Positions 2,945 to 57,328 of a DNA stretch of 64,000 nucleotides are shown one piece after another (positions within the stretch are counted from its first letter, which is position 1; the number at the start of each line of letters is the position of its first letter). Source of the stretch: Gracilariopsis chorda (lineage: Eukaryota > Rhodophyta > Florideophyceae > Gracilariales > Gracilariaceae); NCBI GenBank assembly GCA_003194525.1, contig NBIV01000094.1:124001-188000 (forward strand), written 5' to 3'. The notes under the pieces were generated by a model, which did not search any database, was not told the origin of the DNA, and worked only from the letters and a program-made list of their open reading frames with translations. A program made the position numbers and the translations under genes.

Positions 2945-2949
2945 GAGCT

Positions 2950-4592: not shown

Positions 4593-7210
4593 GGATACCC
4601 TTTGGAAAAGGAAACGAGTGCACCCATCCCACACCAAGCTAGGTCAAAAGTCCTTCAATATCAACGAAGAGCTCGAACAACGATAGCGAAAATGATGGAT
4701 AAACCCCAAATAGAGTAGAACCGTACACGGTACCCAAAGGGTATCGCATGACAGCGAAGTGAAGAAGTTCGAAGAAGAGAAGAAGAAGAAACTTCTCGTC
4801 CGAGATACAACGAAGTTGATGAAATGATGTAATTATAGGATTACTGGATTAAATTGTATACCATTCTAACTGTTTAACTAAGAAATTTAATGATTTTAAG
4901 AACATTATGAAGCGAAAACTGAAGGAGAAGCTTGAAGAAAGAAATAAGAAGCACAAAAGATTGGTTTAATCCAGAAGCCATTGCAATATCTATCGCTTAT
5001 ATGTTAATATCAGAATACTAAATCCAAGGTATCCCCAAGATAGTCCCGCACCACATACACTGGTTGACTGAGAATAGTTTGGCATGGCGAAAGCCAGGAG
5101 CTGTTTAACACCTATCATGTCTGGAGATACTTGGATCTTGAGTTTTTTTATATTCGCGTGGAACGCAATGACCTGAAAGTCCCTTTCAACTGGAGGCAGT
5201 AAGCCTACCTGAGATTTCAGCCCATGCATCAACGTCACGAAGCCCTAACCCTCGGGAGCGAAAGCAATAGATTGGATGGACGCCTCAGTGTTTATTGGAT
5301 CAACTTAGTCTATAGACAGTGCATATTGACGGCCCCTAAAATCGTTGGGCTCGTCATTCATCAGCCAATCATCGAATTCGACCGAAGCCTAGTAATCATC
5401 ATGACCCACAAATCCTTTTGAATGACCCGCTGATATGGTCCGCAGAATACTGAGGTGCTCTACTGCCTGAAAACGGTACAACGTTGCACCCACAATTGGT
5501 CGTAATAAGCATAATCTCCAACAGTTGGATACCAGTGGCTCAGAAACGTATCACAAAGATTTTTCGGGCACTAATAGCGGATGTCCCACGGAACGGTATC
5601 TCAGTTGATCTGTTCGATCACATCCACAATGTAGAACACTTCACTCATGTTCTATTGGAAGCGTGATGACATTAACAAGCCAAGCTTTTGAGAATGTGTA
5701 AAACCATTGGCAGTGTTAAGCAAAGAAAGTAGTGTTTAGAAGCTTCCCAGAGGAGGACAAACGTTACGCGAGTAGCCCATTCCACGGCGATAACTGACCA
5801 ATAACCGAATTTTAGATCACAAATGATGTGAGAACTAATATAAGTTGAAGAGGGAGGTAGTTCCGTGAAACAATCCTAGAGTAAGTTAACATGACGCTAA
5901 CAAAGTAGTAGAGATGCAAAGAGACCCTGACATTTTGCAGGAAATACCGTTCAGTTTCGATATGAATTTATGGAATGAGATACCAATGGCGTCAACGCGC
6001 TAGCCGCTCAAATCCAGTTTTCTCAGAGAAACTCGCTTGCATTTCGGAACCACGGATGAGCCGAAACTCTGCAGTGATGATTGATGTCTTCCAACGGAGA
6101 ATATTGGACTTGATGGTTAGCTGCATTGCTGTTTCGAAGTGAGCCTTGTCGAAACTTAATAGGTTAAAACCATAGAAAAGTTCGATATAGGTAAGGTACC
6201 TAGATGCGTCGAATTCGCGTGCGATGAGAATCAGGTGCTGACAGATAGTACGCATGAGCCGTTTATATACAAGTCGCATAATTTATTCTTGGGCCCCATA
6301 CAGGTTCTGCCAACGGCAGATATATATCCTAAAAATATTAAGATTTAACGCCATGCGTCCTTGCCAGTCATGTGAGGTGACTATGTCAATTGCACGCCCA
6401 CTAAATAGAACGCCGTCGTGTGCGTAGGACTGAATCAGTGCTACATTGAAACTCTCAGCCGGGTGAAATCCAAGAAGCGCGGGCAGATATCGATAGATTC
6501 TGTAACAGATCTCGTGCTTTCAGGGTTACCCTGCCAAACCACCAGAGTTGGTTAATTATCTGAGAAAAGTGTCACCCTCGGACGTGTACCAGATTGCTTA
6601 CAAGAGCCTGAACCTGAGGCAACTGAGCCGCAGAAAACCGGATCCGTCCGGAAGACGAAGGAGCGATACTCTCAGACTAGGGAGCACCTGTTTTAAGGTT
6701 ATGCAGACTGGAATAGTTGGTTTTCATTGGTGAGGATGAATAATCGGATTCGATGTTGTAGTTTTTGGTTTGCAACGTTATGCTTGGAAGCGGAGAAAGG
6801 TTGAGATCACTCATGAGAAGTTAAATTATTTATATCCTGCGTCACTTGCAGGTTGCTCGTTATAGTTGCAATGTTTTCTTGTTTGAGAAGAGTGCGTTGT
6901 GGAGCAATTCGAGTACGCATATCTTCTATCGAGGTGGATCATGAGTGAATCAGTATCGACGTGGCATCCCATTAGTGCTCAGGACTACCGCATTTGTGCG
7001 TTGTTCGTCTTTCTGAAAGAGCATCGGATGCCATGATATAGCCTCTGTAGTTATTTGCATTGCTCATTCGAAAACCGTTCTGATCCTTTCTTCCCTAACA
7101 TTTTAAGAGTGGCTTTTGGAATATAATAATAGAGTTTGATGAGATATTGGTTTTTTGTAATGGGTCGTGGTCGCCCAAGACGTAACTCGGCGGGGCTCGC
7201 ATTATCTATA
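4593..7210. other. 2.6 kb without a recognisable gene
   Basis: Frames are all under 100 codons and none shows a family motif. The longest is a minus frame at 5992-6279 (95 codons, with LVYKRLMRTICQHLILIA). A purine-rich GAAGAAG tract lies at 4761-4795. The stretch may contain old transposon debris that I cannot identify by eye. Confidence 0.3.
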
Positions 7211-14034: not shown

Positions 14035-14303
14035 TGTTAGTGCTGCACAAGAGCGGCGCCGAGAATATTTATTATTGTCTGTCTGTGTCTCTCTGTCTTT
14101 TTGTGTTTTTTATGTTCCTTCTTGTTCATTCTGCAACCGAGGGCAGTGAAGCAAACCTTATATGCTTCTCGGTTGTAACAGATAACTTACACGTGGCAAG
14201 TAGCTGGAGGGTTACTTTCCATGCTACCCAATAAAATACAGAATAGCAATGACATTGCTAGCTTATGTCATTGCTGTCATACACGTGTAGTACACGTATC
14301 ACA
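14035..14303 (-). repeat. 3' LTR of element A
   Basis: It matches 21425-21696 over its whole length, with scattered substitutions and small indels (for example ATATGCTTC against CTTATATTCTTC). Landmarks are GAGCGGCGCCGAGAATATT near the left end and GCAATGACATTGCTA near the right. It is 3' because gag-pol runs on the minus strand. Confidence 0.9.
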
Positions 14304-14347
14304 CGAAACTGTCCCTAGCGCCTGCCACGGGCCCGGCGCTGAAACAG

Positions 14348-14355
14348 TATATATA
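14348..14355 (+). promoter_or_regulatory. TATA box candidate for the antisense ORF of element A
   Basis: TATATATA lies 45 bp inside the inner edge of the 3' LTR and points towards the plus-strand frame that starts at 14610. Element B has a TATA box at nearly the same place (42 bp inside its 3' LTR), which argues for a real antisense promoter. The distance to the ATG is long (about 260 bp). Confidence 0.4.
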
Positions 14356-14609
14356 CAGTACGTTATCAGTCTCAAATAAGTTCTCATGCTCAGGCACCCC
14401 CCAAACCGGTTGTATCTTCTGCTGCGGCTCTTCGAAAGGGCCATAAACTCACACAAACTCATACTTTCGTCTCATATTCTTACTCTTGAGTGAAAACATC
14501 AGATTTGTAGCTGCGGGCGGCCCACTCAACACAGTTTCACAGTTTAGTCTGCAGTTCTTTTGATAAAAATTTTCGAGTAGTCAATCCCAACGCAAGTCAT
14601 GTTGCAAGA

Positions 14610-16598
14610 ATGCAAGTCAGCAATCTTCCCGTTCGTCAGTCTAATTGCAAACGTTACCCGAATCCCAAGTATTTTATTGAGGGGCCTCCTGTTACCTTAC
14701 CACCAGATGTTGTTGATATGATTCATGAAGTGCTTGATAAAGGTTATATATCACATAACTCAGCTCACAGTTCCACACATGCTTCTTTGCCAGAAATAGA
14801 AAATGATGTTAGTTCTTCTTCTTCAAGCTTAAATTATTCTTATATTTATTCAGACCGGAGATCTGAAGTTCATTTGAAGATTCAACGCATGCAAAAAAAA
14901 AATTGTTATTGAGAAGCTTATGGTTGGAGATGGATCCCGAGAAAGGAAACCAGTTCTTCGAGAGGGTGCTTTTTATGCATGTGCATCATCTCGTGTTGGT
15001 ATTGACCAGTTCTGTGAAATAGATGTGAATTCTCTTTCAATCTTCATTGAGCACGGCAAACATTTGTCCCGTCAATTGATTGCTGAGGCGTAGTACGCGC
15101 AGCGTGGTAATCTACAAAAGAAGTTACATATTCATTTGAGCGTCTCACCTTCTTTCGCAAATAGTGCACACCTGTATACAGAAAATATTCTGGAGGCAAT
15201 AAGAAGACCTCCTGGTGGTAGCATTATTATTTGAAAACCTGGTGCTGGTTCAGATGTCCCTGGCCTGAGGCACTTTCATGATCCCCATGGAAACAGGCCA
15301 TTACGACGACAGAACAGCGGAAATTGCCTTACTGCAGCCGCTAAGAACTGTGCGTATCAGATGGCATTATATCGTTCTGGGTAGAGCACGAAAGCCTCAG
15401 AGCTCGCAGGTCGACTAGAGAACGCACTTCTTCAGATTCATTATGCACTGAAAAGTGTTAGCAGTGCTTCAACTGCTATTAAAACCTCATGTCTTGGCCT
15501 CGATCTTTGACGTATACCAAAGTTTATGTACACCTTTGGCTTCTCAGCTGGATTCTCGGTCCTCATTGGTACGTGGTTCGTCTTCGCAATAACTGAAGTG
15601 CAACGCCCTCAGGGAGGGATTCCTGTTACTTGATCGTTTTCCCGGTATTATCGGTTGTGTAGTGTGTATATGAACTACGCCCCACAATGGTGGGTATGGA
15701 CACGTGGGACACGGTTTTCGGTCAATTGGCGGTTGGCCACAGTAGTGGATGTTGCCACGATATGTGGAGTACTTTAGTTGATTTTATTTATTATTTTCAC
15801 ACCCATTTCAGGGAAGCTAGTACTTAGTGCGACGGCGCACTGCCGTCGCACCAGTAAACCTTCCACAAGAAGGGACCCAAACCTGGGGAATTGGCTCTAG
15901 ATGTTACCGCTTGCGCACGTGCTCTACTCCTTCTTGGAGGGAAACGCCGTAAACCACGGGACATCTAACCCCCTTGCACATCTAGAGAGGCCCATTCTTG
16001 GGATTATAATTGTTCCAATAACATTGGTGTTTCGCCCTGTATAGTGAGTCCTGTCCACCGGCATTGCCGTATTTGTTCGTCGCTCTCGCGACTCAGCCTC
16101 GCCCACTCTTCCTTCTTTCCCTTCACTCTCCTCCTTTCCCCCTTTCATGGTAGTACATACCGCTACCCGCGGCCCTCCTGTGTGCACCCGCTCACACTTC
16201 CCCACTTACGTGGAAACATACCTCTACTGAGGATCACACCCCGCTCACGCGGATACCGATTCTTCGCCTTCACCTCCCTGCGCAAGTCGCGACAGGTGTC
16301 CCTGGTCTTGGAAACCCGCTTCGCCGTGACACCTCTGGGAGGGCTCTACCCAACTGGGTTCACCTAGTTAGAGGAAGATCCCGAACATCTTTCGTTGTTT
16401 TTCCCCTTTGGGGCATTGCACCACAATAACTCTGGAATAGACCATGTCATTGTCATTGATTCTTTGAAAGGAATCATAATCGACAGTGCCGAGTCCCGTC
16501 GTATCAAACTATGCATGGCTGCACTGAGACTTTTTGGAGGAGGTGAGCGACGCAATCCTCGCCTCGCGGAAGTACGACAGATGTTGTTCACGCATTAG
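14610..16598 (+). pseudogene. Antisense accessory ORF of element A, possible thiol-protease-like protein
   Basis: On the plus strand, opposite to gag-pol, a long coding remnant runs from 14610 to about 15593 and continues after a solo LTR at 16431-16598. The first part is a clean frame to 14912, then a slip in an A-run (14890-14900) and four stops (TAG, TGA, TAG, TGA) interrupt it. The N-terminal part has a Ser-rich linker. The middle contains NSGNCLTAAAKN, a Cys in a typical nucleophile setting. After the solo LTR come GIDHVIVIDS and GIIIDSAES, giving His and Asp. The order Cys, His, Asp is that of papain-like or transglutaminase-like folds. The ORF ends at TAG 16596-16598, 100 bp from the end of pol. 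No similarity to the antisense proteins of B and C is visible. The protease reading is an inference from three short motifs. Confidence 0.5.
15594..16425 (+). mobile_element. Solo LTR of the element C family inserted in element A
   Basis: An 832-bp block beginning TGAAGTGCAACGCCC and ending GGGCATTGCACCACA is the reverse complement, with substantial divergence, of the LTRs of element C (45840-46635 and 56532-57328). It is flanked on both sides by ATAAC (15589-15593 and 16426-16430), a 5-bp target-site duplication. Solo LTRs arise by recombination between the two LTRs of a full element. It splits the antisense frame of element A between the Cys motif and the His/Asp motifs. Its sense direction is the plus strand. 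Confidence 0.92.
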
Positions 16599-16697
16599 CA
16601 ATCGAAATTAATCATATTCAACATGCAAAATGCTTACATATGCATATGCACTCTTCATGAATCTTCAATAAATCTAATGCTTAATCATAGTTGTTTG

Positions 16698-18395
16698 TTA
16701 ATCTTCCAGTATCAATGGGCGTCGGAAATAGAACTTCAATCTCCTTGCATGAATATGTTGTCTTGTCACTCTACCGTGCATACTTTTCAGTTCATAGCGA
16801 GAGTGATTGGCGCTGGTCACACGGCATGGGCCGAAGTACTTGGATGTAAAGCCCGGCCATTTCTTAGCAAGGTTAAGTGCCTTGCCTTTGCAGATGAGAG
16901 CCTCATCACCAACATTAAATGTGATAATTGGCGTATGTCTAGTCTTCAGTTGAGATTGATCTTCAATCCTCTTGAGTCTTGTCGAAATCAAAGTATCTAT
17001 TATCAATTTCCGATGAGTTCCAGTGGCAGCTAGAAGTAATGGGGTGGTGTCATCATTAGTCATTTGGGGAGGAATTCCGTACAGGAGTTCAAAAGGTGAA
17101 CTGCGTCCTCGAAGTGAATGGCGCGGATATCCGTATAGGACACCGGTAATTGCTTCATCCCAAGTCGTCTGGGACTCTAAAACAGTTTTTCTCATAGCAT
17201 TCTTCAAAGTTCCAGTCATCCTCTCAGCTCTTCCATTTGACATTGGAGCATAAGCCAATACATTTTTCCAGACAATGCCATGCTCACTCGTAAAGTTCGT
17301 TAAAGTGCTTGCGGTAAAGCAAGTCGCATTGTCAGAGATGATAAGATGAGAATACCCAAAGGAATAGATTATTTCCTTCTGCACAAAGTCGATAACGGCT
17401 TGAGCTGTGGCATTTTTTGTAGCCCGAGCAAGGGGCCATCCAGTTAGATGCTCAACTGCGACTAACATGAACCTATTTCCTAAATTTGTGGCTGGGAATG
17501 GCCCGGCAAAGTCAATTGAAAATATGTGAAACAAGCCCGTGAGAGGATACTTCAGTGTCGTCTTGTATGTTGGGACGGATACAGCTATTTGAAATCCGTC
17601 ACAACTGTTCACATAATCAATGATATCACGATGAACGTTAGGCCACCAGTACCTGTCCAAAACAAAATTCTTAGTGCATTGAACATCCCAGTGCCCAATA
17701 TCATCATGAATTGTTTTCAGAATTAACGTTCTTGAAGCAAGTGGTGGGATTACTCGGAGGCCCTTGGAGTTACGTCTCATCAGTCTATCATTCCAAGTAG
17801 CAAACATCTTTGCGTTTTGGCGGATACTTCCTCGACGTTTGGGGTCTTTCTCCAAGATGTGTTTACCGTTAAGGTATCTCAGAGTATCCTCCAAATGATT
17901 CTCCATTCTCAACGACTCCACGTTTTCCATATTGATACAGCTCAGATCATCATACTTTTCTTCGATCTCATCAATCATAATTCGTGATAAATAGTCGGCC
18001 GCTTCGTTCTTCTTCCCCAAGCGGTACTGAATCTTAAAATCGTATTCGGCTAGAAAATCCATCCATCTCGCAAGTCTTCCGTGTATATCGTTCTTCTTAA
18101 ATGCGTACTGCAGCGCTTGATGGTCAGTTATCAACGTAAAAGGAAGGGCTGACAACAAGTACACCCTGAACTTTTTCAGCGCAAATATGACTGCAAGTGC
18201 TTCACGTTCGCATGCTGAATAGTTTCGTTCTGCCGATGTCATAGTCCGACTGGCATACTGTATGTGATGCACCTTCTTATCTTCTTTTCTCTGAGCAAGA
18301 ACAGCACCAAGCGAAACAGAAGAAGCATCTGTTTCCACGACAAATGGCGATTCGAAGTCAGGAAATGCGATGAAAGGTGGCGTAATCAACTTCAC
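16698..18395 (-). pseudogene. Element A RNase H and integrase
   Basis: A 565-codon frame, the C-terminal part of gypsy Pol. RNase H occupies about residues 15-140, with acidic residues in VVETDAS (D23), ITDHQAL (D91) and AADYLSR (D134). Integrase follows: a zinc-binding N-terminus with H230, H235 and C265, but the second Cys of the CxxC pair is Phe (CDGF); a catalytic core with D295 (FSIDFAGPF), D355 (IISDNAT) and E391 (NGRAERM), spacing DD35E; and a GPF-type module (KYFGPCRV) near the end. No chromodomain follows. The frame has no ATG at its start and continues upstream into reverse transcriptase past a TAG near 18440, so this is a piece of one long Pol. Confidence 0.85.
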
Positions 18396-18998
18396 TTTCA
18401 GTTCTTCAAATGCATTCTGTTTATTGGAGGTCCAAATCTATTTCTTCTTTTCTGATGTAGCTTCATGGAGGACTGGCGACGGTTCTGCAAAATTTGATAT
18501 GAAACGACGATAATACCCGGCTAGTCTCAGAAAACGTCTTAACTCAGATGCATTGCATGGCTCAAATGCCTTCTGTATTAGTGTAATCTTCTCTGGATCT
18601 ACTTGAATTCCACTACCATCAACAATGTGGCCGATGAGTCATAATTTGGATTGAGTGAAGCTGTATTTCGTAAACTTAATCTTCAATCCATAAGATTCAA
18701 CTCGATTAAAAACTTGTAAGCAATGATCAATATGTTCTTCGATATTATTCGAGAATATTACAACATCATCCAAATATACCATGGCGAATTCTAGTCCTTT
18801 CAAGACAACATCCATTATTCTCTGAAAAGTAGCAGGGGCATTCATAAGTCCAAATAGCATGACTTCAAATTGGTAGGTACCGTACCTGCCAACGAAATTT
18901 GTCTTCTCTTTGCAATAGTTAGCCATTCTTACTTGCCAGTATGCAGAGAATAGATCTAAAATTGTAAAGATGGTTGATCCTCTCAGGTCATCAAATAT
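18396..18998 (-). pseudogene. Element A reverse transcriptase, core and thumb
   Basis: The frame continues from the gag-pro ORF after a TAG at 18999-19001. It includes FTILDLFSAYWQV with the first catalytic Asp, LMNAPATFQRIM, and AMVYLDDVVIFS with the YxDD box. A TGA at 18639-18641 interrupts the stretch before LIGHIVDGSG, and a TAG lies near 18440. The catalytic residues are intact; only the nonsense codons kill it. It belongs with the RNase H/integrase frame that follows. Confidence 0.85.
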
Positions 18999-20831
18999 CT
19001 ATTCGATCTTCGGTAAAGGCCAACGATCGGCTTTCATCACTGCATTTATGGCTAGATATTCAACACAGAAGCGAGGTCTGCCATCTTTCTTCAGTGCAAT
19101 ACCGACAGGAAAAGACCACTCAGAAGCCGACGGGGTAATTACACCAATGCGCAGTATTTCATTGATCTCTTTTCGTACAACATCATTATATTTCGGAGGC
19201 AGTCTTCGCACCCTACTTTTTATTGGTATTGGATCATTCAGCTCGAACGAGTGTTTAACTGGAACATCAGATGGGCGCAAGTCTCCCAAAGACCAGGCAA
19301 TGATGTTTTTGTTCCTCACTGTTGAATTTAACACTTGCTGTACATGTAGTGGTAAATGTTTCAACTTCGTCGGTATATGAGCAGACTTTTCATCATCTTC
19401 TTCAGAAACAGTCTCCGATGTGGTGTCTTCATCATCTTCATTATGATCTTCTTCATCAGCATCTTCTTCTAGCAAATCCGGAATCCTTTCCTCTTCTTCA
19501 GCATGAAATATATCTGGATCGAAAGGGATCTGATCCCTTATCGAAAGAACATGATCTTCTTCACTCTCGCTCTTGTAGGAGCTTGAGAAAGCAACAATAT
19601 CAAAATCAATTGTGAAGCCTTCACTGTCGGTACCAGAGTCGAGTAGGCTCGGTATTTTGTAATCATAATCCAAGTCTAGGACAGATGTTTTTCCATCGAT
19701 CGTAACCATCAAATTCGGATTGCCAAGGTCTAGACAGGTCTCTAGTTCTTCCAATGTCGGTAATCCTATGATGATATCGAACGGGGGTTCTTCAACAACT
19801 AGGAAGTTCAAATGTGTTCTCGAACTTCCAAAGGTCACTGGTATATTCCGTAATACTCCTTTCACAACAGATGAGTTTCCATCAGCCACCGTTATCTTTC
19901 TAGTGGCAGATTCTGGAGATAACCCACGTCCTTCGACAAATGACAGGGACATAAGATTCCGGACTGCTCTGGAGTCCAGTAACGCTGCAACAAATGTTCC
20001 ATATACCTTCACTGAGACAAATTTTAGTCTTCTAGTGGGTGAATCTGTCTGCTTAGCAGTCATTGCTCGAGATGCAACATTCTTCACGCATAACTTTTTG
20101 ATTTGCTTCTTGGCTTCATCAGCGTCTCCGCGCAAAACTTGTCCAAACTTGAGGCCACATGAGGGATTGGCAAGTTCAATCAACACTTTGTACTTCCCAA
20201 CATGATCCGGTATGGATGGCTTGCGTTTAGTTGAAGCTTTCATCTTTTTCGCTGTTCTTCGAGTGGAAGTTCTCTTTGGAATGGAGGGGAGTCGCATAGG
20301 CTCTTTCTCCCCGACGTTTATAGGAACGCGCTCTATTGGATTCAGCAAAAGCGAGAGATCAGCTTCTGATGCCTTATGTTGCTTCGGCAAGGCCTTGCCA
20401 TCAGGTCCACGTTTGGTAGTATTCACAAGGTCTCCTTCTTGAACTTCAGTGAACACCGCTACCTGATTATTTACAGATGGGCCTGCATTAGAATCAGAGC
20501 AAGATTTAAGATTCCTCTCGGGTTTCGATTCAACATCGGCCTCGGTATTCCGTACTTTCTTCGGCTCCGGAGGTGAAAGTTTTGCCCAACACGTAGCTTT
20601 AGAATGCCCCAGTTTGTCATATATTCTGCAACAAGTGTTTCTGTGTGGGTTGTCGGGGCACGTTGAGGCTCCATGACCGAATTTATTGCAATACGAACAG
20701 GTGCGAATCTTACTCTCTTCTGTTGGCTCGCTCTGTGTTTTCTTTACTAACAGAGAGAGTTGTGAAATCTGCTCAGTCAGATCTTCCACCTTATTTTCCA
20801 AGGACTGAACGGCCTGTTCTGGACGACGCAT
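18999..20831 (-). pseudogene. Element A zinc knuckles, protease and start of reverse transcriptase
   Basis: 610 codons. A coiled coil lies at 5-30. A CCHC zinc knuckle is at C45-C48-H53-C58, and a second at about 67-81 has adjacent cysteines (CCRIYDKLGH) and is probably damaged. The retropepsin site at 286-288 reads DSR where DSG/DTG is expected, so the Gly of the active-site loop is lost; IIGLPTLEEL follows as in the family. An acidic Asp/Glu-rich linker covers about 430-490. The reverse transcriptase begins with EINEILRIGVITPSASEWSF and ends at a TAG after WPLPKIE, exactly before the first catalytic motif. It is in frame with the next Pol segment. Confidence 0.85.
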
Positions 20832-20876
20832 GATCTTCCTTGGTTCATTTCGACGAGATGATGAACCGTGAGCAAA

Positions 20877-21440
20877 TCAATATGAAGACTGGAAGGAGTT
20901 CACACAATTCACATGGTCTTTAACTGTATTCTTCAAAGACTCATATTCATCCGCCCTTCTGACCAGGAAGAACTGAGCAAGATCTATATGTTCCACGACA
21001 GCGTTCCAAAGAAGTCCATACTTGGCTTGTTCGTTTAAACCAGCCTTATCGAAACACTGATCCATATCCTTCAAATACTCAACAAGTTCCAGTGCTCGAG
21101 GTTGACATGCCATTACTTTCCTAATAAGCTCTTGCGGTTCTTCAACAACTGCAAACATTTCCAGTAGCGAACGTTTTACTTCAGAGTAGTCGAAAGCCTC
21201 TATAGACAAAGCTCCATCGATTGCATACGTATCATAATAGAAGTCAAATGGTTCACCACCAAGATATCCGATGATTTCTGACGCTCTCTCTTCCGATGAC
21301 TTTCCCTTCATAATGATATTTTCATAATAGAAAAAGAATTTGACGGCATCACCTTGTGAACTACCGTCGAAGATATATATGCAAGAGCGCGCATTAGAGG
21401 CATCGGCCCTCCTCATGAGTACCATGTTAGCGCTGCACAC
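20877..21440 (-). pseudogene. Element A Gag (capsid-like)
   Basis: 187 codons, first codons overlapping the 5' LTR edge; a second Met (MVLMRR) lies at the LTR boundary. It contains IFDGSSQGDAVKFFFYYENI and ERASEIIGYLGGEPFDFYY, resembling the retrotransposon Gag capsid N-terminal pattern (FxGxxxxAxxFxxxxExxF...). It ends at a stop 46 bp before the ATG of the zinc-knuckle/protease frame, so the two may once have been one polyprotein. No enzyme motif is expected in Gag; the assignment relies on position and weak pattern. Confidence 0.65.
21405..21424 (-). other. Primer-binding site candidate of element A
   Basis: Immediately internal to the 5' LTR the minus strand reads TGGTACTCATGAGG. Starting with TGG it could pair with the CCA end of a tRNA. 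It differs from the site shared by elements B and C. The tRNA is not identified. Confidence 0.4.
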
Positions 21441-21696
21441 GAGCGGCGCCGAGAATATTTATTATTGTCTGTCTGTGTGTCTCTGTCTTTTTGTGTTTTT
21501 TTTGTTCCTTCTTGTTCATTCTGCAACCGAGGGCAGTGAAGCAAACCTACTTATATTCTTCTCGGTTCTAGCAGAAATCTTACATGTGGCAAGTAGCTGG
21601 AGGGTTACTTGCCATGCTACCCAATAAAATACGGAATAGCAATGACATTGCTAACTTATGTCATTGCTATCATACACGTGTGTTACACGTATCACA
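21425..21696 (-). repeat. 5' LTR of element A
   Basis: Partner of 14035-14303. It starts TGTTAG and ends ATCACA on the plus strand. It contains a run of pyrimidines with TTTTTGTGTTTTTTTTG, and GCAATGACATTGC as a small palindrome. Confidence 0.9.
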
Positions 21697-22640
21697 AGAA
21701 GCACGCTTGGGTAGAAAAATATGCCATTACAGTACCAGTGTTTGCCCGTATTTGTAACGGTGTGCTAACAATTTACCCGGTTTTTAAAATTTTCAGGAGC
21801 AGCAGCAAAGCTCAAAACTCATTGCCTGTTGCCGAAACTTCCGCTTCTTCTGCTCTGCACTGGTTGTGCACTCTGCCACGTGGCACATTTCACAGCCAAT
21901 GACTGTTAGCGAAGTGCTACGACTACTGTTTCGGATCTACTTCTCCCATATTGGCTCTGGCGCAGCTCGTGGAGTCATTATTACTGTGCCATGCTAGACA
22001 TGGATCCAAAAATATATACTTGTCAACAACCGTGTAATAATTTTCTGCGGCATTAGATGCAAATTATCGGATGTGGAACGAAAGAAATGCCACTGCAGTA
22101 AGGGCCATTCTATGACTTTCTTTACGCGGAAACAGTGAACGCAAAACCTGAAGCCGTCCAATAAAACGACGGCACGTTGCAAAACGTAAAAGCCTTAGTT
22201 AATTTCGGTCTGTAGCTCAAAAGTTTCGAGGTCATGTGAACGATATTTGAGCTCACTTTCATGCTCTTGTTTAATAAGTAGGCTCCTACAAATCACTTTT
22301 GTAAATATGACAAGATGCATAAAAATTCCATGCACAAAACAAGCTCAAAAACGCCTCAAAAGCATTGCAAACATCACTTTTTGTCCGATAAAGGTCTCTA
22401 ACTTGGAAGTACCCAACTTAATGAAATTCAGAGTCTAAATCTAACCGTTCTAAATGTCATTGAAGAAGCGAAAGAGATTATAACAGCTGCTGCGATAGAT
22501 ATTTACACATCTAAAGCCATATTCAAATGCTCGAAGATTGCAAGAACACAAAATTCTCGATTATCAACAAAGAATCTCCTTAAAACGCACAAACTGGTAC
22601 AGAGTTCAAAACTCATGGCGGAAATACTGAAGCCAGTGCA
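21697..22640. other. Spacer between elements A and B with a dispersed repeat
   Basis: No gene recognised. The stretch 21941-22020 shares GCTCTGGCGCAGCT, ACTGTGCCA and ATGGATCC in the same order with 40131-40190, and the flanking sequence also aligns loosely (about 21790-22020 against 39965-40215). This marks an unidentified dispersed repeat. The five bases before element B are GTGCA. Confidence 0.5.
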
Positions 22641-23248
22641 TGTGGTATTCCACCAACGACCGTAGAGTCTCGGTAGCAGAGGTGGATATCCACGGGTAAC
22701 CACGTAAGCGGACGCCGCCTTGCGGGCCACTGTCCAGTAACACAGGCTCGGGTGCCAAACGGTGATGTCTCATGAGTGCACGAACGGACGAAGAGTCGGA
22801 GGGTTCGGAGATCTCAGTGTCGAGTACAGCACAGGAATACCTGAGAAAACTGCACACAACGCCAAGTAAAAGGGGCGAAACGGGAGTCAGTAATGATAGG
22901 AATATTAGGAGATCCTCTAAACGAGAGTTGTAGCCCAGATACCGTTAGGCACTGATGCTACAGGCACTCCAATGTCATAAACGACTGAGGATTCCTGTAT
23001 TTTACCACTTGGGTAAGAAGTTAGTCGTTGGTTAGCGTCCGCCTTCCTCACCTGGGCTTCAGCCCCTTACTAGGCCTCTAAGGGCAGCGCGATGGCCTCA
23101 CTGTCAAGCCTATACGTGTGCCACCCATTAGACAGTTCTTTTCATAGCTGTCGCTCAGTAGCGTTAACCTCAACGTCAATTGATGAGTTGCATCCCCCAA
23201 CTTAAGCGATAATCGGCACTCCGAATCTATTGCATCCTGAATGCTACA
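22641..23248 (-). repeat. 3' LTR of element B
   Basis: 608 bp, matching 32557-33255 apart from substitutions and a 92-bp insertion in the latter. Its ends, TGTGGTATTCC and GAATGCTACA, form an imperfect inverted repeat. Just inside is a C-run (23251-23257), G-rich on the element's own strand, a possible polypurine tract. Confidence 0.9.
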
Positions 23249-23289
23249 CGTCCCCCCGTTAAGAGTGGAGCGCGCACGACGCAGGAGCG

Positions 23290-23296
23290 TATAAAA
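23290..23296 (+). promoter_or_regulatory. TATA box for the antisense gene of element B
   Basis: TATAAAA lies 42 bp inside the 3' LTR on the plus strand, 107 bp upstream of the ATG at 23403. Between them is a C/T-rich leader, and the ATG context is CACAATGA with A at -3. Together these look like a complete small promoter for the antisense frame, separate from the LTR promoter. Confidence 0.6.
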
Positions 23297-23402
23297 GCGA
23301 CTTCGCCAAGCAGCTCTCTGCACATCATCTCGCTCTTTAACGAACACAAGCAATACCAATCTCACTCTCTCAAGTGTCTTTGCTTTTTCTTGTGTCGACA
23401 CA

Positions 23403-24996
23403 ATGAACAAATATCCACCCTACGTGATTCCGCCGTCATCCTATGACGATCTAGACGCTCCTGCTCAGCCTGCAGCCACTTCACGTCATCATCCGACACC
23501 TTTGTCACAAACTGCGCCATTGCCGCAAAGATCTTCTGGGCCAGCGGTCCCCGCGTATGTTCTGCCTCCTGGCGTACAAGCTCCACAGCCACCGATCCCC
23601 GCAGGTTCTTTCCCTTCGTATTCGGAGTTGGTGGGGCGTGCTCCTTTGCGAAACTTGAACGTGTACGCACGAGCTCCTTGGTTCTTCCCAGCGGCTGTCC
23701 GCATTGAAGAGCTTATCGGGAGCTACGTGGTCGCCGGTCGACCTCCTGACCGTGGCCCATGGTTTTCCCTATACACAACGGATTGGTTGAGCCATTGGGC
23801 CCTGTTTGATTGAGCAATAATTCGTCACCAGGGCAAATCCATGGCGGAGACCCGCAGACAATTCTTGCGACTGGTATATATGCGGATGCGCCGCGTCATT
23901 GGGACGGTTCCCTTGAATGAGGATTGAGGTCTCCATACTTGGTATGCCCGCACCGGCGGAGAACTTTACGCATATGCCGAGAACCTGGCTCATCTGGATA
24001 TCCCCTCAGTTCCGTGCGGAATTCCGCTTCCTTTGCAAACGCGACATCCTCTACTGGGACGTCCCAAGGTGGGAGCAACGTGCGAGGTCGCAACTCGGGT
24101 ACCTTGTACCATACCAAATGTTGGAAATCGACCAAGTGCGGTTCCGTTCGCCCGTTCGGCGCTACACCCCTATCCTGAGGCAATGGCATAAGATCGAGAG
24201 TCTTCGTGGTTGCGCTGTGGAGCTCCTTCCTGCCTTGACCGACGTGGGGTCTGCCCTTACGAACGATCCGTTCTCCGGTTATTGGATAGTCGTCTACACC
24301 AAAGTCATTGCCAAGGTGGCTTTGTATGTCCTGTGGGACGTCTATGACACATACCTCTTGTGGTACATGAGCCTAACTGCTCGGCGATACGCGAGAGAAC
24401 TCGACCTGTCCTTGATACTTGGCTGACGAGCCAACCAGGAGGAATTCCGTTTTCTGATAGACGTAATAGACCAGATTAACTGGAGCCTTGTGCCAACTGA
24501 ACAGGTAGCGCGTGGGTCACATGACGTCGATCACTTTCCGGGGAGGAACGGCCCTGGCGGTGACTTCGTGTGGTATGATCCTTTGACCAGTCAGTACATC
24601 GATGGTGCCCACGCGAAACACCTACGTGAGAATCCGCGAGCGATGCCCCCAACCCAGCCCACTGGCTACGTATTTGAACCTGCTTCGCCCAATCCTGACG
24701 CTCTCTTCGACGAACTGGGGAATCTCGAAGCCGATGCTGAGGCGGACGGGGAAGCCATGGAGGTATCTTCACCATATGCGGGCGATGACGTCGAACCGAG
24801 TGCTGTGGCGATGCAGACCTCTGCTCAAGTGCCTGGTCAACCAATTGGTACGGGCAAAAAGGGCGAGCTCGGCATGTTGAGGCAATTCCTCCTAGACGCT
24901 AGCATTCCGCCTGACCAGATCCCCGGTGGTCGTCAGCAGATTCTGAACCTCTTGCGCCACTGCATGGACGACGGTCCAAACAAGAACACGTGCTGA
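23403..24996 (+). pseudogene. Antisense accessory gene of element B (homologue in element C)
   Basis: A coding region of about 530 codons opposite to gag-pol, in three pieces: 23403-23813, a part read in two frames around 23814-24000, and 23917-24996 broken by one TGA at 24424-24426. It starts with a Pro-rich segment, then PSYSELVG and ARAPWFFPAA, then a Trp/Tyr-rich globular part (RAEFRFL, SQLGYLVPYQ, RGCAVELLPALTDVGS, SGYWIVVYT, DLSLILG), and an acidic C-terminal region (QPTGYVFE, EADAEADGEAMEV) with a final helix GMLRQFLLDASI. All these motifs have counterparts in the same order at 46692-48517 in element C. No known domain is recognised; it is neither an envelope nor a Pol protein. Precedent: some plant gypsy elements carry antisense ORFs in the same place. 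Confidence 0.75.
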
Positions 24997-25187: not shown

Positions 25188-25754
25188 TTACGAGCTAGTG
25201 CGTCCTAGGACGATTAGACTGACGAGGGTGGCATTGATATTCTCTTCATCCAGTTTCGCGCGCCTACAGTAGGCTAACACCAGAGATAATGAAAGATGAG
25301 CGGTGGGCTCCCAGGTGTTGCTATCCGACGGATATCCGTACCAGCGTACTCTGAACAGCGGACTGTTGTCCTCATCGTCCCATCCGAGAGCCACGATACG
25401 TTTTATAACGTACTTCTCATCAATCTCGGGTTCTCCCGTCTCTGTGAGTTCACCTTCGGCAGTGGCCGTGAGCTTACGAGTGTCCTCGATTTGGTAGCCT
25501 TGCGACGAAAGATTTCGAGTTGCGAGTTGGCGCATGTCAGGGCTCCTAACGACGGACCATTCCTGGCCCATTGTCATGGAGTCACCAGTTTCCTCCGGTT
25601 CTGCAGTTGCCTTCAACTTCTTTTTCGGCTGTTCCAATTCAATTGGCGGTCCCACGACGCTTCGCGTCGCTTGGTGCTCGATACTTGTCCATGGGGGCTC
25701 TTCCTTTTCCGGTGGTACTGTATCCGGCATGTTGGGGGTGTCCCGTTGTTGCAC
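25188..25754 (-). pseudogene. Element B integrase tail with chromodomain
   Basis: 188 codons. Residues about 115-170 form a chromodomain: YVIKRIVALGWDDEDNS, LFRVRWYGYP, NTWEP and a final LVLAYCRR helix, with the aromatic residues that build the methyl-lysine cage (Y, W, W). Chromodomains at the end of integrase direct chromoviruses to marked chromatin. The first 110 residues are low-complexity linker. It lies in a different frame from the preceding integrase segments, so it is separated by frameshift, but it is the natural C-terminus of Pol. Confidence 0.8.
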
Positions 25755-26094
25755 GGCATCCCGTAACGTCGGGTCAGCCGAAAAAACCTTTTTAAGTGGT
25801 CATGCCACTGCTCTGACATCCCTATCATCCTGCGTTGTTACTTCTGCGGAGATGTCCCGACGGTTCCGTGCTTCTGCACTTCCGGAGTCGACGGGCGACA
25901 GTGTGTCCTTTGGCTTGGCGCTCTCGCCTTCATCTCTTTCAGCGAGTGGCCTTTGCTTATTGAGGTCGAGCTCCTGCGTTCAGAATTTGGAATTGCCGTC
26001 TGTTCGGGTGTTCTCGTGCGACTTTTCCGCGATCTTCGCAAGCTTTCGTGAGGAAAGAGCAGCGTGCTGCACCGTAGCGGCACGGATTGCTTCG

Positions 26095-26598: not shown

Positions 26599-28167
26599 TT
26601 AGGCCTTTCCCATGTCTTCTGCCGCTTGAGCCGCGCGTGCGCGTAGCTCATTCCTCCAGCGTAGTTGAAACTGGGTAGGCGTCTTCTCCTGGTCCCTATC
26701 CTGCCAGTCAATCTCGATCGGCAATGCTGGCGGGCGGTGTGATAGTACCAGCTCAAACGGTGCCAATTTCTTTGTCGAATGTACTTGCGTATTGTACGCA
26801 TAACACAGTGTATCTGTATACAAGTCCGAATATTTGGGATAGTCCGCAATGTAGTGCCGTAGCGCCGCTAAGGCTGTGCGGTGGTACCGCTCCACTTGGC
26901 CGTTACACTGAGGATGGTAGGTCGTGGTAAACACGTTCTTGACGACCAGTATCCTACATACATTTTGTAAGAAGCGTGTAACAAATTGATTACCATTCTC
27001 TGAGAGCAGAACCTCCGGTGGGGCAAAGTAATACACCCAATGGTGGCTAAACGCTCGTGCTATCACGGCTTCAGTAATCCGTTTAAGCGGAACAGTCCTT
27101 ACCAGCTTGGAGAAGCGATCGGTGATTACCAAGTGGTATCGATTTCCTCGCTTAGAGCGAATCAGCTCGCCAAGAGTGTCAATGCTGAAATACTGTAGGG
27201 GCGCTTTCGCCGGGAATAGCTTCAGTGGCTTCTTATTTCTCCACAATTTCACTCTGTTCTTAGCGCAGGTTGCGCATAGCTTAGCTGTTGCGTGACAATC
27301 GATTGCCAAGGTTGGCCAATAGAAGTCCTTCCTGAGGCTCAGGTAGAGTTTCTTTCCTCCTGGATGACCAAATAGCTGTGAATAATGGGCCAGATGCACT
27401 ACCCTGCTCTTGAGCCCGTGAGGTATCACAATCTGATCATGCTTTTCGACATTTCGAATAAGAATAACGCGATCGTTGAGACGAAATGGTAACTCCTCCC
27501 CCCCGCTAAGACGGGAGCGGATGCCCGCACAGAAGGGATCTGTGAAATGTTCATGTAAGAGCTCGTGGAGGAAGACACGCTCCAGTTGTTGGTCAGCAGG
27601 CGTTTCCGTCGTCTGGGCGACAAGAAGGTCGAAGTAGTATTCGTACTCGTCGAATTCCTCCAGCATGTCTGGTACCATTTCCACTTTTTGAGAATCCCTC
27701 ATTAGCGAACATGGGATGTCATCATCGACCGGTAACTGGGTTTCGCACAAAGTTTCCAACCGTGATAGCGCGTCAGCATGCACGTTTGAAGTTCCCTTCT
27801 TGTAAGTGACGGTGAACTCCAACTCGGAAAGGCGCAAGCGCCATTCCATGAGACGTTCCGCAGGGTCGGAAATGGACATAAGCCATCGCAGGCAAGAATG
27901 ATCGGTATTGAACGTGAAATGGACACACTGTAGGTAAGGCCAAAGGGTCATAAGAGCCCATACCACAGCAAGGCACTCCTTTTCTGACACCGAGTAATTC
28001 CTTTCTGCCTGATGCAGGGATCGAGACCAGTATCCGATGGGATATCGTTTCCAGTCCTTATGGGTTTGAAAAAGGGCACAACCTACTTGATAATCGCTAG
28101 CGCCCATGTCGACGGAAAAGGGGAAATCCGGTTTCGGAAAACTGAGCACAGGGGCTGAGGTCAGCAT
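26599..28167 (-). pseudogene. Element B RNase H and integrase core
   Basis: 522 codons. RNase H has VDMGASDYQVG (D20), FNTDHSCLRWL (D89) and HADALSR (D132). The integrase zinc domain has H261, H268 and C298-x2-C301. The core has D330 (FSIDTLG) and E426 (GQVERYH), but the middle residue, expected Asp in LSDNG, is Glu390 (LLSENGNQF). The spacing (59 and 35 residues) is that of a normal DD35E core. The substitution would remove normal catalysis. The core runs into ELVLSHRPPAL before ending. The frame starts with CTG, continuing from a broken reverse transcriptase. Confidence 0.85.
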
Positions 28168-28332
28168 GCACTATAGCGGTTCGAAAGCTTCCGTTTCGGG
28201 GTTTCGGAATTCCTGCAACTGTGAAGGCTGACTTGTTTTCAAAAGGGCATTGAGAGGTCCAGCGATGTGCGAGTAGCGTGGAAAGAATCGTCTCTAAACG
28301 TTACAAAGCCCTAGAAAGGCTCTTAGTTGGGT

Positions 28333-32534: not shown

Positions 32535-32551
32535 TCTAGGTCAGGAGACCA
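32535..32551 (-). other. Primer-binding site of element B
   Basis: The plus-strand sequence TCTAGGTCAGGAGACCA ends in CCA five bases from the 5' LTR. Its complement would be the site for tRNA priming. Element C has the same 17-mer with one difference (56512-56528), so the two share a primer. I could not name the tRNA. Confidence 0.6.
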
Positions 32552-32556
32552 GTTTA

Positions 32557-33255
32557 TGTGGCATTCCACGAACGAATTTAGGGTCTCAGTAGCAGAGTTG
32601 GATATCCACGGGTAACTGTGTGAGCGGGCGCCGCCTTGCGGGCGACTGTCTAGTAAGACAGGCTCGGCTGCCAAACGGTGATATCTCATGAGTGCAAGAA
32701 CGGACGAAGAGTCGGAGGGTTCGGAGATCTCGGTGTCGAGTACAGCACAGGATTAACTAAGAAAACTGCACACAACGCCAAGGAAAAGGGGTGAAACGGG
32801 AGTCAGTAATGACAGGAATATGAGAGGATGCTCTAAACGAGAGTTGTAGGTCAGATACCGTTAGGCACTGAGCTACAGGGGCTCCAATGTCGTAAAAGAC
32901 TTAGGATTCCTGTAGTTTACCACTTGAGTAAGAATTTGGTCGTTGGTTAGCCTCCGATATCCTCACCTGGGCTTCAGCCCTTTACTAGGCCCATAAGGGC
33001 AGCGCAACGACCTCACTGTCAAGCCTATACGTGTAGTTAGCCACTATTTGGCACTAGAATAAAATATCGAATAAATTATTTGGCAATGGGTGCCAGGGTT
33101 GTACAGGTGTACAACTGCACTAGTGTGCCACCCATGGGACAGTTCTGTTCATAGCTGTCGCTCAGTAGCATTAACCTCAACGTCAATTGATGAGTTGCAT
33201 CGCCCAACTTAAGCAATAATCGGCACTGCAAATCCATTGCATCCTGAATGCTACA
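32557..33255 (-). repeat. 5' LTR of element B
   Basis: Partner of 22641-23248. It starts TGTGGCATTCC and ends GAATGCTACA. It is 699 bp long because of a 92-bp insertion at 33034-33125. Confidence 0.9.
33034..33125. repeat. 92-bp insertion in the 5' LTR of element B
   Basis: This block is absent from the other LTR, and a GTG triplet is repeated at its two sides (33031-33033 and 33123-33125). It has ATTTGGCA twice and a palindrome GTTGTACA-GG-TGTACAAC. It may be a miniature transposon or a captured fragment. Confidence 0.6.
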
Positions 33256-45839: not shown

Positions 45840-46635
45840 TGTAATGCAATGCCCGGAAGCCGGAATGCACCGAAAGACGTTCGGGATCTTTCGTCGTTAG
45901 ACGTGAGCCCAGTTTGGTAGAACCTTCCTAGGAGTGCCACGACTATGCCGGGTTGTAAGGACGAGGCCACCCGTCGCGACTTGCGCAGGGAGGATGGGGC
46001 AAGAATCGAGTATCCGAAGTAGCGGTGTATGGGGGTGGTCGTCCTCTAGAGAGGTGAGGTTTCTATGTCAGTGGCACGCGCGAACACGAGCCGTGGGTAG
46101 CGGGAAAGCCACCCTGTAAAGGGAAAAATAAGGGGGAGCTGAGTCACGAGTGTCGTGACGAAGACTAATGGCAGTGCAGGTAAATAAACCTTATACAAGG
46201 CGAAAACCAAGAAAGCTGGAATAACAATCCTAATAATCGGGTCCTTTGGATGGGCAGGGGGGTTAGGCTTCCCGTATGCAACGGTGCTTCCCTCCAAAGA
46301 GGAGTAGAGAACACGCGAAGGGAGTGAGGTCTAGAGGCAACTCTCCAGGTTGGGGTCCCTTGTTGGGGAAGGTTTACTGGTGCCACGGCAACCCGCCGGC
46401 GCACTAAGTACTAACCCTCCCAGAAATGGGTGTAAAAATAATAAATAGAAGTAACTAAATTACTGCACTTTGGTGGTTCATGCCCACTACTGTGGCCAAC
46501 CGCCAATTGACTCTTCCGTGTCCCACGTGTCAAATCAACTATTAGTGGTCGTAGTTCATGCAATGACTGCATTACTGAAACAGTCGGGAAATAAACCAAG
46601 TACCAAGAATCCCTCTCTGAGGGCATTGCGCTTCA
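45840..46635 (-). repeat. 3' LTR of element C
   Basis: It starts TGTAATGCAATGCCC and ends GGGCATTGCGCTTCA. It matches 56532-57328 with few differences. A minus-strand frame of 83 codons inside (46046-46297) with two hydrophobic segments is present in both LTRs; it is probably chance. Confidence 0.95.
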
Positions 46636-46691: not shown

Positions 46692-48517
46692 ATGGGTGAT
46701 AAAAGCCCAAACCTCTTCGAGTCACCGGGTCAAGTCTCTGACTCAGAGAAACAACCTCCTGCAAAAGCAGCGAACCAGCCTTCAACAAGTGCCCGCTCCT
46801 TCTCTTCCTGCTCAACTCAGTTAGATCACGGCCTTTCGAAGGGGAATATGAACAACAACAACAACCAGCCTCCAAGACCGACTCCAGTCAGGAGCTTCAC
46901 AAACGGTTTCCGGTGGATACCCTTGCCACAAGGGAGGCGAACTCCAGCACAGCCGGCCAACAATGGCGCAGTTTCCGAGCATGGGTTCCAACTTCCACCA
47001 GCGTTGGCTCCTTCCAGACTGATCCTGGAGGCGACTTGGCCTTCTTATAACGCTCTCGTAGGGTTAGATCCGATGAATCGGGGTCACGCCTCTCGGCTCC
47101 GGCTTGCGTCGTGGTTCCATCCCATCGCTGCCCTCAACGAGGATTTAATTATGGCCTGCGCGGAAGGTTCCGGTACTTAGCCCGAGGATCTACCCAGCCT
47201 CGTCACCTCTTTGTGGGACTGGCGGCATCAAATCACCATCCCGGTGCACCATATCCGAAAAAACCCTGGAGAATCCGCGATTGCGGCTCATACAGTGCTG
47301 GTGCGGATTGCATATGAACGGCAGAGCCGGGCGCCTTTCGAATTCCCGACGCCTACTGGCTTTGGCTTCGACGTCAGCCTATTCCGCACGTGCGGTGAAA
47401 TCGGTTACGGCGAACGCCTAGCCAGCCTCGAAACCCTTGCGTGGAGGAACGTTCCCGTTGCGTGGCAAGAAGCCCTGTGTTGGGAACTACCGATACTTTG
47501 GGCTGAATTCCGGTACCTTTCCCGGCAGTCCCGGTCCAACTTCCTCCAAAACTTCTTCCGTTATGAACGGCGCTGGCGATCCCGACTCGGATACTTTGTC
47601 CCGTATCAAAACGTGGAGATTGAGCGGATTGCTCCGCCTCACCGACACGGTCAGTATGTCGCACTCCCCGAGTGGTGGAGGTTTCTTGAAGCCTGCCGGG
47701 GTTGCTACGTTAAACTCTCGCCAGCACTCACGTACCACGGCTCCTTTTTGATTCAGGATGCCCGCTCGGGGCTTTGGTGGGTAGTCGTAACATAGTGGGC
47801 TGCCCGCACTGCGGCGTATATCCTCGCTGAGGTTTGTGACCAGTATCGACTGTGGTTCATCCAACCACGTGTGCGGGCCGCTATTCGCAATCTGGACCTC
47901 AGCGTCCCCCTTGGGGGTGTTGCCAATAATGACGAAGTACTCCAATTACTTGGTTTAATCGACATTATTGACTGGCGCGAGGTCCCGCTAGAACAGAGCA
48001 GTCGGCTTGAAGGCGGCGGTGATGGTACCGGTGGTCCGGGTCTCGGTAGAAACACCGCTCTTGCGGGAGATTATATCTACTTCGATCCCTGGGAGTTCCG
48101 GGAGATTTTCTCCGAGGAGGCGAGTGAACTCCGCGACGCACCGCGGCACGTTCCGGACGACCACCCGATTGGGTACGTCGATTTCGATGATTACTACCGC
48201 CCGTATAGCGGGGATGACCCGATGGTAGATAAAAAACCCGAAGAGCCGGGGAAATGGAACTAGACGTTGCTGACATGGTCGTAGACGAAACCCCCGAGGG
48301 GGTGCCTCTAGTTCTCACTCCTCCAACAGAGAGCGCCGGGCCTTCACTCTCCAGCGGGGGTACAGTCAATGAAAGCGATATCATTGCTTGCTTCCTCCGC
48401 GGAGCGGGTCTAAGCGCTGCCGATGTTTCAGTTGACTTCACCGCGATGGCGGATGCCTTGGCTTACCGCATTGCGGGTGGTCACTCCCCGGACGATGGGG
48501 ATGGGTCGAACCTCTAA
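46692..48517 (+). pseudogene. Antisense accessory gene of element C (homologue in element B)
   Basis: About 608 codons opposite to gag-pol. Frame one runs from the ATG at 46692 (open upstream into the LTR to 46470) through TAG at 47178-47180 and TAG at 47793-47795, both in frame, to TAG at 48261-48263. The C-terminal part lies in another frame (48254-48517). An Asn/Gln/Pro-rich start is followed by motifs shared in order with B: WPSYNALVG (B: FPSYSELVG), SWFHPIAA, AEFRYL, SRLGYFVPYQ (B: SQLGYLVPYQ), RGCYVKLSPALTYHGS (B: RGCAVELLPALTDVGS), SGLWWVVVT, YRLWF, LDLSVPLG, DYIYFDPWE (B: DFVWYDPLT), HPIGYVDF (B: QPTGYVFE). No TATA box is visible inside the LTR edge; a TAATAAATAGA stretch in the LTR (about 46440) is the only candidate. 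Confidence 0.8.
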
Positions 48518-56424: not shown

Positions 56425-56511
56425 CCGTTACGACGGGAAAACAACGGAACTTCGGGAAAACAAACAAAAGAAACAAAACCTCGAAAGAGGGAACCAAACA
56501 CCAAAACCGAT

Positions 56512-56531: not shown

Positions 56532-57328
56532 TGTAGTGCAATGCCCGGAAGCGGGAGTGCACCGAAAGACGTTCGGGATCCTTCCTCGTTACAGATGAGC
56601 CCAGTTGGGTAGAGCCCTCCCAAGAGTGGCACGACTATGTCGGGTTGTAAGGCCAAGGCCACCTGTCGCGACTTGCGCAGGGAGGTTGAAGCAAGAATCG
56701 GGTATCCGCAGGAGCGGTGTATGGGGGGTGGTCGTCCTCTAGAGAGGTGAGGCTTCCACGTTAGTGGCACGCGCGAAAACGAGCCGTGGGTAGCGGGAAA
56801 GCCACCCTGTAAAGGGAAAAATAAGGGGGAGCTGAGTCACGAGTGTCGTGACGAAGACTAATGGCAGTGCAGGTAAATAAACCTTATACAAGGCGAAAAC
56901 CAAGAAAGCTGGAATAACAATCCTAATACTCCGGTCCTTTGGATGGGCAGGGGGGTTAGGCTTCCCGTATGCAACGGTGCTTCCCTCCAAAGAGGAGTAG
57001 AGAACACGCGAAGGCGTTGAGGTCTATATCCAATTCCCCAGGGTGAGGTCCCTTGTTAAGGAAGGTTTACTGGTGCGACTGTAACCCCCCCGCGCACTAA
57101 GTACTAACCCTCCCAGAAATGGGTGTAAAAATAATAAATAGAAGTAACTAAATTACTCCACTTTGGTGGTTCATGCCCACTACTGTGGCCAACCGCCAAT
57201 TGACTCTTCCGTGTCCAACGTATCAAATCCACTATTAGTGGTCGTAGTTCATGCAATGAATGCATTACCGAAACATTCGGGAAATCAACCAAGTGCCAAG
57301 AATCCTTCTCTGAGGGCATTGCACTTCA
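56532..57328 (-). repeat. 5' LTR of element C
   Basis: It starts TGTAGTGCAATGCCC and ends GGGCATTGCACTTCA. Partner of 45840-46635. GGAGC follows as the target duplication. Confidence 0.95.

What the first reader, a model, noticed from the sequence alone, without database searches (positions are those of the whole stretch)
23403..24996. Conserved antisense gene in gypsy chromovirus B, with an end-to-end homologue in element C
Elements B and C both carry, between chromodomain and 3' LTR and on the strand opposite to gag-pol, a coding region of 530-600 codons. The two products share about ten short motifs in the same order (for example SxLGYxVPYQ, RGCxVxLxPALTxxGS, SGxWxVVxT, PxGYVxx) while the elements themselves have clearly diverged. 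Conservation of protein motifs in an antisense frame implies selection for a protein, not a chance open frame. I recognise no known domain. Antisense ORFs are known in some plant gypsy lineages (for example Grande-type elements), but this protein is not one I know.
Basis: partly seen in the sequence, partly recalled or inferred. Interest (0 to 1): 0.92.

Follow-up and report, generated by a model that had tools for sequence, protein, structure and literature searches.

The report
Antisense gene in seaweed jumping genes
Many copies of one lineage of red-seaweed jumping genes carry an extra protein gene written backwards on the opposite DNA strand; evolution has kept the protein, yet one thriving branch has cut it out, which makes its role testable.

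Summary
B (23403-24996) and C (46692-48517) carry relics of one protein gene on the strand opposite gag-pol, between chromodomain and 3' LTR. Both window copies are broken, but the same genome (probably Gracilariopsis chorda or a near relative) holds at least 228 loci, 161 with an open frame of 500 codons or more. The protein (about 520-670 aa) has a Pro/Ser-rich head, an arginine-rich core of about 370 aa, an acidic linker and usually a short tail; no convincing match in Pfam, PHROGs or PDB. dN/dS is about 0.2 in the two most diverged measurable pairs, higher and up to 1.3 between recent copies. Its divergence tracks that of pol. Homologues occur in Agarophyton chilense and in unnamed contigs. 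Antisense ORFs at this place are known in plants (Grande, Retand), so the kind is known; the protein family and the red-algal chromovirus setting are not in the papers I searched. New here: a subfamily lost nearly the whole gene by one deletion, yet 40 of 40 scored loci share that junction and one still has a 1875-codon frame. The gene is selected but not needed in cis. Best reading: an accessory protein that can act in trans; role unproven.

The parts
23403..24996 (+). antisense gene (aORF) of element B, decayed
   Evidence: ATG, TGA; homologue P0001 aligns over 1-547 in two frames with stops.
23290..23297 (+). TATAAAAG, candidate core promoter of the B aORF, 113 bp before the ATG
   Evidence: sequence match only, no transcript data.
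23249..23264 (-). polypurine tract of element B (reads as a C run on +), between 3' LTR and aORF; ends approximate
22633..23248 (-). 3' LTR of element B
   Evidence: direct repeat with 32549-33255, 89% and 93% identical in two pieces.
32549..33255 (-). 5' LTR of element B
25188..25799 (-). 3' end of B pol with chromodomain, convergent with the aORF
   Evidence: PF00385, E 1.7e-8.
26599..28170 (-). B pol: RNase H and integrase
   Evidence: PF17917, PF17921, PF00665.
46692..48517 (+). aORF of element C, decayed
   Evidence: L017 protein aligns over 1-594 in two frames, 2 stops in one.
45840..46635 (-). 3' LTR of element C
   Evidence: 92.5% identical to 56532-57328.
56532..57328 (-). 5' LTR of element C
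5681..6468 (-). third, degraded aORF fragment in the window
   Evidence: tblastn pieces; E 6e-19 for the L017 query.

Best explanation
It is a protein-coding accessory gene of one lineage of red-algal chromoviruses, placed head-on to gag-pol. SHOWN: position, orientation, open frames, purifying selection, joint divergence with pol, secondary loss in one subfamily. INFERRED: it is read from its own antisense mRNA, starting near the polypurine tract/3' LTR edge, and the product (arginine-rich core, acidic linker, no clear membrane segment) acts in trans on the element's RNA, chromatin or silencing, as proposed for plant antisense ORFs (PMC7264820, PMC11963269) and described for HTLV-1 HBZ. Trans action would let aORF-deleted relatives spread by using the protein of full elements.
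For: At least 228 loci, 161 with a frame of 500 codons or more and no stop in the core. Opposite strand to pol in 28 of 28 fetched aORF loci (these were chosen for having an aORF). Of 120 chromodomain hits compared with the capped aORF lists, 22 have a listed aORF within 3 kb, and all 22 are convergent. dN/dS 0.172 and 0.228 in the two pairs with dS above 0.3; in three pairs the aORF frame gives 0.215-0.317 and the other frames 0.335-2.26. aORF and pol distances correlate: Spearman 0.68 over 14 dereplicated loci, 0 of 2000 permutations. All 16 aORF-set loci in an integrase tree of 37 lie on one side of a split with support 100. TATA-like site between PPT and ATG in 4 of 12 representatives, where shuffles never exceeded 3 in 1000. 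The aORF-less locus C546 nests inside the aORF clade (support 91), lost nearly the whole gene in one deletion relative to L029, and 40 of 40 scored hits, itself included, span that junction.
Against: No transcript or protein data. A TATA-like site is missing in 8 of 12 representatives, including three with room for one (L010, L013, L031); the motif was chosen after looking at the sequences. Of four pairs with dS 0.06-0.09, dN/dS is 0.32, 0.50, 0.69 and 0.72, and in two close pairs pol is much more constrained than the aORF (0.19 against 0.72, 0.28 against 0.86). The aORF-less subfamily can equally mean that the protein is simply dispensable.
Confidence: 0.55

Rival explanations
1. Chance open frame, or a shadow of a conserved sense-strand gene.
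For: Sense-strand ORFs of roughly 150-240 aa overlap the aORF in some families.
Against: In 3 of 3 pairs tested, substitutions pile up at third positions of the aORF frame; other frames give dN/dS of 0.335-2.26. The lowest of these, frame -2, shares its third positions with the aORF frame.
Confidence: 0.02
2. The antisense RNA, not the protein, is what matters (self-limiting silencing or dsRNA).
For: Convergent layout could give RNA overlap; discussed for plant elements in PMC7264820.
Against: Amino-acid-level conservation and codon-position pattern.
Confidence: 0.07
3. The protein has a cis-limited or conditional benefit and is simply dispensable; the aORF-less subfamily needs no help.
For: 40 of 40 scored hits share the aORF-less junction at 95-100% identity over 421 bp (capped at 40).
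Against: The subfamily lives beside close aORF-bearing relatives (91-93% DNA identity), and long-term selection on the gene is seen elsewhere.
Confidence: 0.25
4. Structural particle protein or envelope-like protein.
For: Position between pol and 3' LTR is where env-like genes lie (PMC7264820).
Against: Antisense, not sense. The highest 19-residue hydropathy is below 1.6 in 23 of 26; the other three are 1.86-2.15. A separate sense ORF lies in the gag position (window 55033-56427; no Pfam hit, called gag by position and my reading); no profile similarity to it or to pol.
Confidence: 0.06
5. A host gene captured by the element.
For: Origin unknown; capture is known for other elements (PMC7264820).
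Against: No named non-element homologue in 25 proteins found; the family is diverse (P0022 is 26-33% identical to nine others). The context of the 25 proteins could not be read.
Confidence: 0.05

Closest known systems
aORF-3R of plant LTR retrotransposons (Grande gene23, RIRE2, Retand ORF4, PvRetro13) and fungal Boty
   Same: Antisense ORF between pol and 3' LTR, kept in many copies; Grande gene23 has its own upstream promoter and a nuclear product (PMC7264820, parts 1 and 2 of 3 read).
   Different: Retand is a non-chromovirus lineage (PMC11963269, abstract); that Grande and RIRE2 are too is recalled. Here the carrier is a red-algal chromovirus. No PF04195 match in Pfam scans of 12 and 21 members or in the genome.
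HTLV-1 HBZ and related retroviral antisense genes
   Same: Gene on the antisense strand near the 3' LTR.
   Different: About 520-670 aa with no bZIP (recalled as HBZ's domain) or other confident Pfam domain; no direct sequence comparison made.
ENV-like sense aORFs of plant elements (Athila, Bagy2)
   Same: Lie between pol and 3' LTR.
   Different: Those are on the sense strand and some have membrane segments (PMC7264820); neither is seen here.

Membership tests
[quoted passage not shown]
aORF-3R class | Antisense to gag-pol | tested here: met
   28 of 28 fetched aORF loci; all 22 chromodomain/aORF neighbours convergent.
aORF-3R class | Kept in many copies, conserved like other element proteins | tested here: met
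   exception: an aORF-deleted subfamily. What share of all copies carries it was not measured.
aORF-3R class | Antisense transcription from an own promoter (shown for Grande) | tested here: inconclusive
   TATA-like sites in 4 of 12 representatives; no RNA data.
Retand ORF4 (TRP28) family | Transposase_28 domain PF04195 | tested here: not met
Grande GENE23 | Sequence homology to gene23 | not tested
   gene23 sequence was not at hand; only Pfam was tested.
Chromovirus (carrier element) | Integrase followed by a C-terminal chromodomain | tested here: met
   (rve and Chromo in L009 pol; Chromo in B and L016).
ENV-like protein | Sense orientation and transmembrane segment | tested here: not met
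HBZ | bZIP domain | tested here: not met
   No such Pfam hit.

The most novel reading that the evidence does not exclude
Red-algal chromoviruses are ambisense elements whose antisense-encoded protein is a trans-acting public good: full elements make it from a promoter beside the polypurine tract, and deletion derivatives that keep gag-pol spread as cheaters that use it.
Probability: 0.3. Interest if true: 0.78.

Novelty: new variant of a known kind. Interest (0 to 1): 0.62.

Why it matters
The role of antisense genes in LTR retrotransposons is called unknown in PMC7264820 and PMC11963269. Here is a large family outside plants and fungi, in chromoviruses, with selection on the protein plus a natural deletion series in one small genome. 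That lets the question 'needed in cis, supplied in trans, or dispensable?' be tested with population and RNA data.

Tried and rejected
Domain searches (Pfam on pieces, on 12 and on 21 members; PHROGs on 7; PDB by two profiles) gave only weak hits: best Pfam E 0.029 (E3_binding, 5 of 21 members), best PDB E 0.21. Similarity of the aORF to the sense gag-position ORF or to pol: none. phages (136-aa piece only), viral contigs and genome contigs: no relative. PF04195 in the genome: none.

Whether the aORF outlasts pol (a sign of domestication) stays open. The six then fetched leave out the four of the twelve that already had a listed 609-codon aORF, so they lean towards broken aORFs. In the six, the aORF is intact in 2 and the compared pol stretch in 1. 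Adding the four from the lists, the aORF frame is open in 6 of 10; long pol frames (1884-1885 codons) are seen in 3 of 10. The lengths compared differ, so no conclusion is drawn.

A first automatic PPT pick was wrong for several loci and was redone, where L025 is still mis-picked; the call's count of 5 of 12 is therefore 4 of 12. The top-30 chromodomain sample proved to be mostly another chromovirus lineage, 1 of 30 with an aORF.

Rows dropped: three pieces of one locus (C988) were not entered; the hits were not merged. L024, L026, L035 and the window copies were left out of dN/dS because they are broken; 4 of 20 dN/dS pairs were saturated. Trees kept only loci with enough aligned integrase columns (37, 26).

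Full report
WHAT IS IN THE WINDOW. The window lies in a 91.3-Mb genome of 1081 contigs. One protein of the named record Gracilariopsis chorda is 96% identical to copy L009 of this genome over 45% of its length, and six homologues are from Agarophyton chilense, so the source is most likely G. chorda or a close gracilarioid red alga (inference). Elements B (LTRs 22633-23248 and 32549-33255) and C (45840-46635 and 56532-57328) run on the minus strand. On the plus strand of each, from just inside the 3' LTR towards the chromodomain, lies the reported reading frame. Both window copies are decayed: homologues align in two frames with stops.

IT IS A LARGE FAMILY OF GENES. Protein searches of the genome with three queries gave 146, 113 and 120 matches, each a capped list. 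Merging (230 rows entered) gives 228 distinct loci; 161 have an open frame of 500 codons or more with no stop in the matched core. In 28 of 28 fetched aORF loci pol matches lie on the opposite strand (in one search, with open frames only, 27 of 28 had a pol match). Twelve long copies align with 32-95% identity to the first and 68 invariant columns.

SELECTION ACTS ON THE PROTEIN. Twenty pairs were compared. Ten pairs with dS below 0.05 give dN/dS of 0.52-1.27, as expected if copies decay neutrally after insertion. Four pairs with dS 0.06-0.09 give 0.32, 0.50, 0.69 and 0.72. Two pairs with dS above 0.3 give 0.228 (dS 0.32) and 0.172 (dS 1.9, near saturation). Four pairs were saturated. Three pairs were read in all six frames: the aORF frame gives 0.228, 0.317 and 0.215, the other frames 0.335-2.26; the lowest of these, frame -2, shares its third positions with the aORF frame. 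For pol, ten pairs give 0.157-0.99, sometimes lower and sometimes higher than the aORF of the same pair. aORF and pol distances correlate over 29 loci (Spearman 0.63) and over 14 dereplicated loci (0.68); with a second pol anchor 0.60 (25 loci) and 0.63 (12 loci); 0 of 2000 permutations reached the value in each case.

WHERE IT OCCURS. Twenty-five distinct homologous proteins were found: seven named (six A. chilense, one G. chorda) and 18 from unnamed contigs; P0022 is 26-33% identical to nine others. No relative in viral contigs or in prokaryote genomes; a 136-aa piece had no match in phages. Within the genome, the 30 top-scoring chromodomain loci belong mostly to a second chromovirus lineage, and 1 of 30 had an aORF within the 1.5-kb flanks. 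An integrase tree of 37 loci puts all 16 aORF-set loci on one side of a split with support 100.

ANATOMY OF THE PROTEIN. In 26 sequences: a head of variable length, Pro/Ser/Gln-rich in the copies of this genome; a core of about 370 residues (297-389) with 34-47 arginines and 0-12 lysines; a linker of net charge -2 to -22; a C-terminal stretch, absent in two. Three pol stretches have 47-65 Arg and 19-37 Lys. Eleven columns are invariant over 26 diverse members. No clear membrane segment: hydropathy maxima are below 1.6 in 23 of 26. No convincing Pfam, PHROG or PDB match and no profile similarity to the gag-position ORF of C or to L009 pol.

START REGION. Twelve representatives were examined. 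The polypurine tract (a C run on the aORF strand; degraded in C) sits at the LTR edge 45-213 bp before the ATG that I chose. Between it and the ATG a TATA-like site occurs at -107 to -134 in 4 of 12 (B, L009, L014, L030). One search counts five, but the fifth (L025) rests on a wrongly picked C run; shuffles gave a mean of 0.37 and a maximum of 3 in 1000. The pattern was chosen after looking at the sequences. Five representatives have the ATG within about 60 bp of the PPT and no site (L016, L017, L018, C, and L025 by my reading); three with room have none (L010, L013, L031). The start codons are my choice from alignment, not proven.

LOSS OF THE GENE. L072 has an open pol stretch (in a 1885-codon frame) but only the two ends of the aORF; that deletion is private (1 of 40 scored hits spans it). 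Locus C546 has a 1875-codon open frame ending in the chromodomain, with reverse transcriptase (PF00078, E 3.4e-37) and integrase in the pieces read; its gag end was not read. No aORF match follows it (L074). L074 aligns to aORF-bearing L029 at 91% and 93% on the two sides of a gap that removes L029 1477-3258, that is, all but about the first dozen codons of the aORF at 1442-3223. All 40 scored hits, C546 included, span this junction at 95-100% identity (capped at 40, 1789 candidates). Whether the other 39 keep their pol open was not tested; three seen have frames of 298, 1102 and 1385 codons. C546 integrase nests with C and L017 (support 91) and is 94% identical to L017 over 150 aa. The gene was therefore lost secondarily, and the deleted form multiplied. 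A test of whether the aORF outlasts pol was inconclusive (see Tried and rejected).

INTERPRETATION. Shown: an antisense, selected, protein-coding gene that belongs to one chromovirus lineage and can be lost. Inferred: it is expressed from an antisense promoter, and its product is a trans-acting accessory factor, plausibly nuclear. This fits selection in the lineage, loss in one branch, and survival of the loser beside donors. Plain dispensability remains the main rival.

LITERATURE. PMC7264820 (parts 1 and 2 of 3 read) reviews antisense aORFs in plants and fungal Boty: function unknown, own promoter and nuclear product for Grande gene23. PMC11963269 (abstract and passages) describes TRP28 antisense ORFs in Retand. 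In the main text of PMC6317226, a search for 'antisense', 'aORF', 'additional ORF', 'extra ORF' and 'opposite orientation' found no occurrence. Full-text searches pairing antisense ORFs with oomycetes, red algae, algae, Rhodophyta, plant elements or chromoviruses, and G. chorda or red algae with LTR elements, chromoviruses or transposable elements, listed no title or abstract reporting this gene; apart from the three papers named I saw listings only, some searches returned more papers than were listed, and the library lacks most subscription journals.

Noticed in passing
window 5681-6468 (-): A third, heavily degraded aORF fragment in two frames.
   Followed up: partly
window 14035-21700: Element A: a gypsy-type element with a 276-bp terminal direct repeat (92.8%) and an RNase H/integrase ORF; no aORF match, and no chromodomain in the ORFs scanned. 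It carries an inverted stretch related to the C LTR at 15593-16426.
   Followed up: partly
L037-L064 (chromodomain loci): A second chromovirus lineage in the same genome, with better-scoring chromodomains; 1 of the 30 loci L037-L066 had an aORF in the flank.
   Followed up: partly
L074, L078, L079 / G000:C546: aORF-deleted subfamily: 40 of 40 scored hits share one junction; C546 itself keeps a 1875-codon frame.
   Followed up: yes
aORF core of L009, L016, L017: The core is strikingly lysine-poor in these copies (0-3 Lys against 41-46 Arg) compared with pol stretches of L009 and L016.
   Followed up: no
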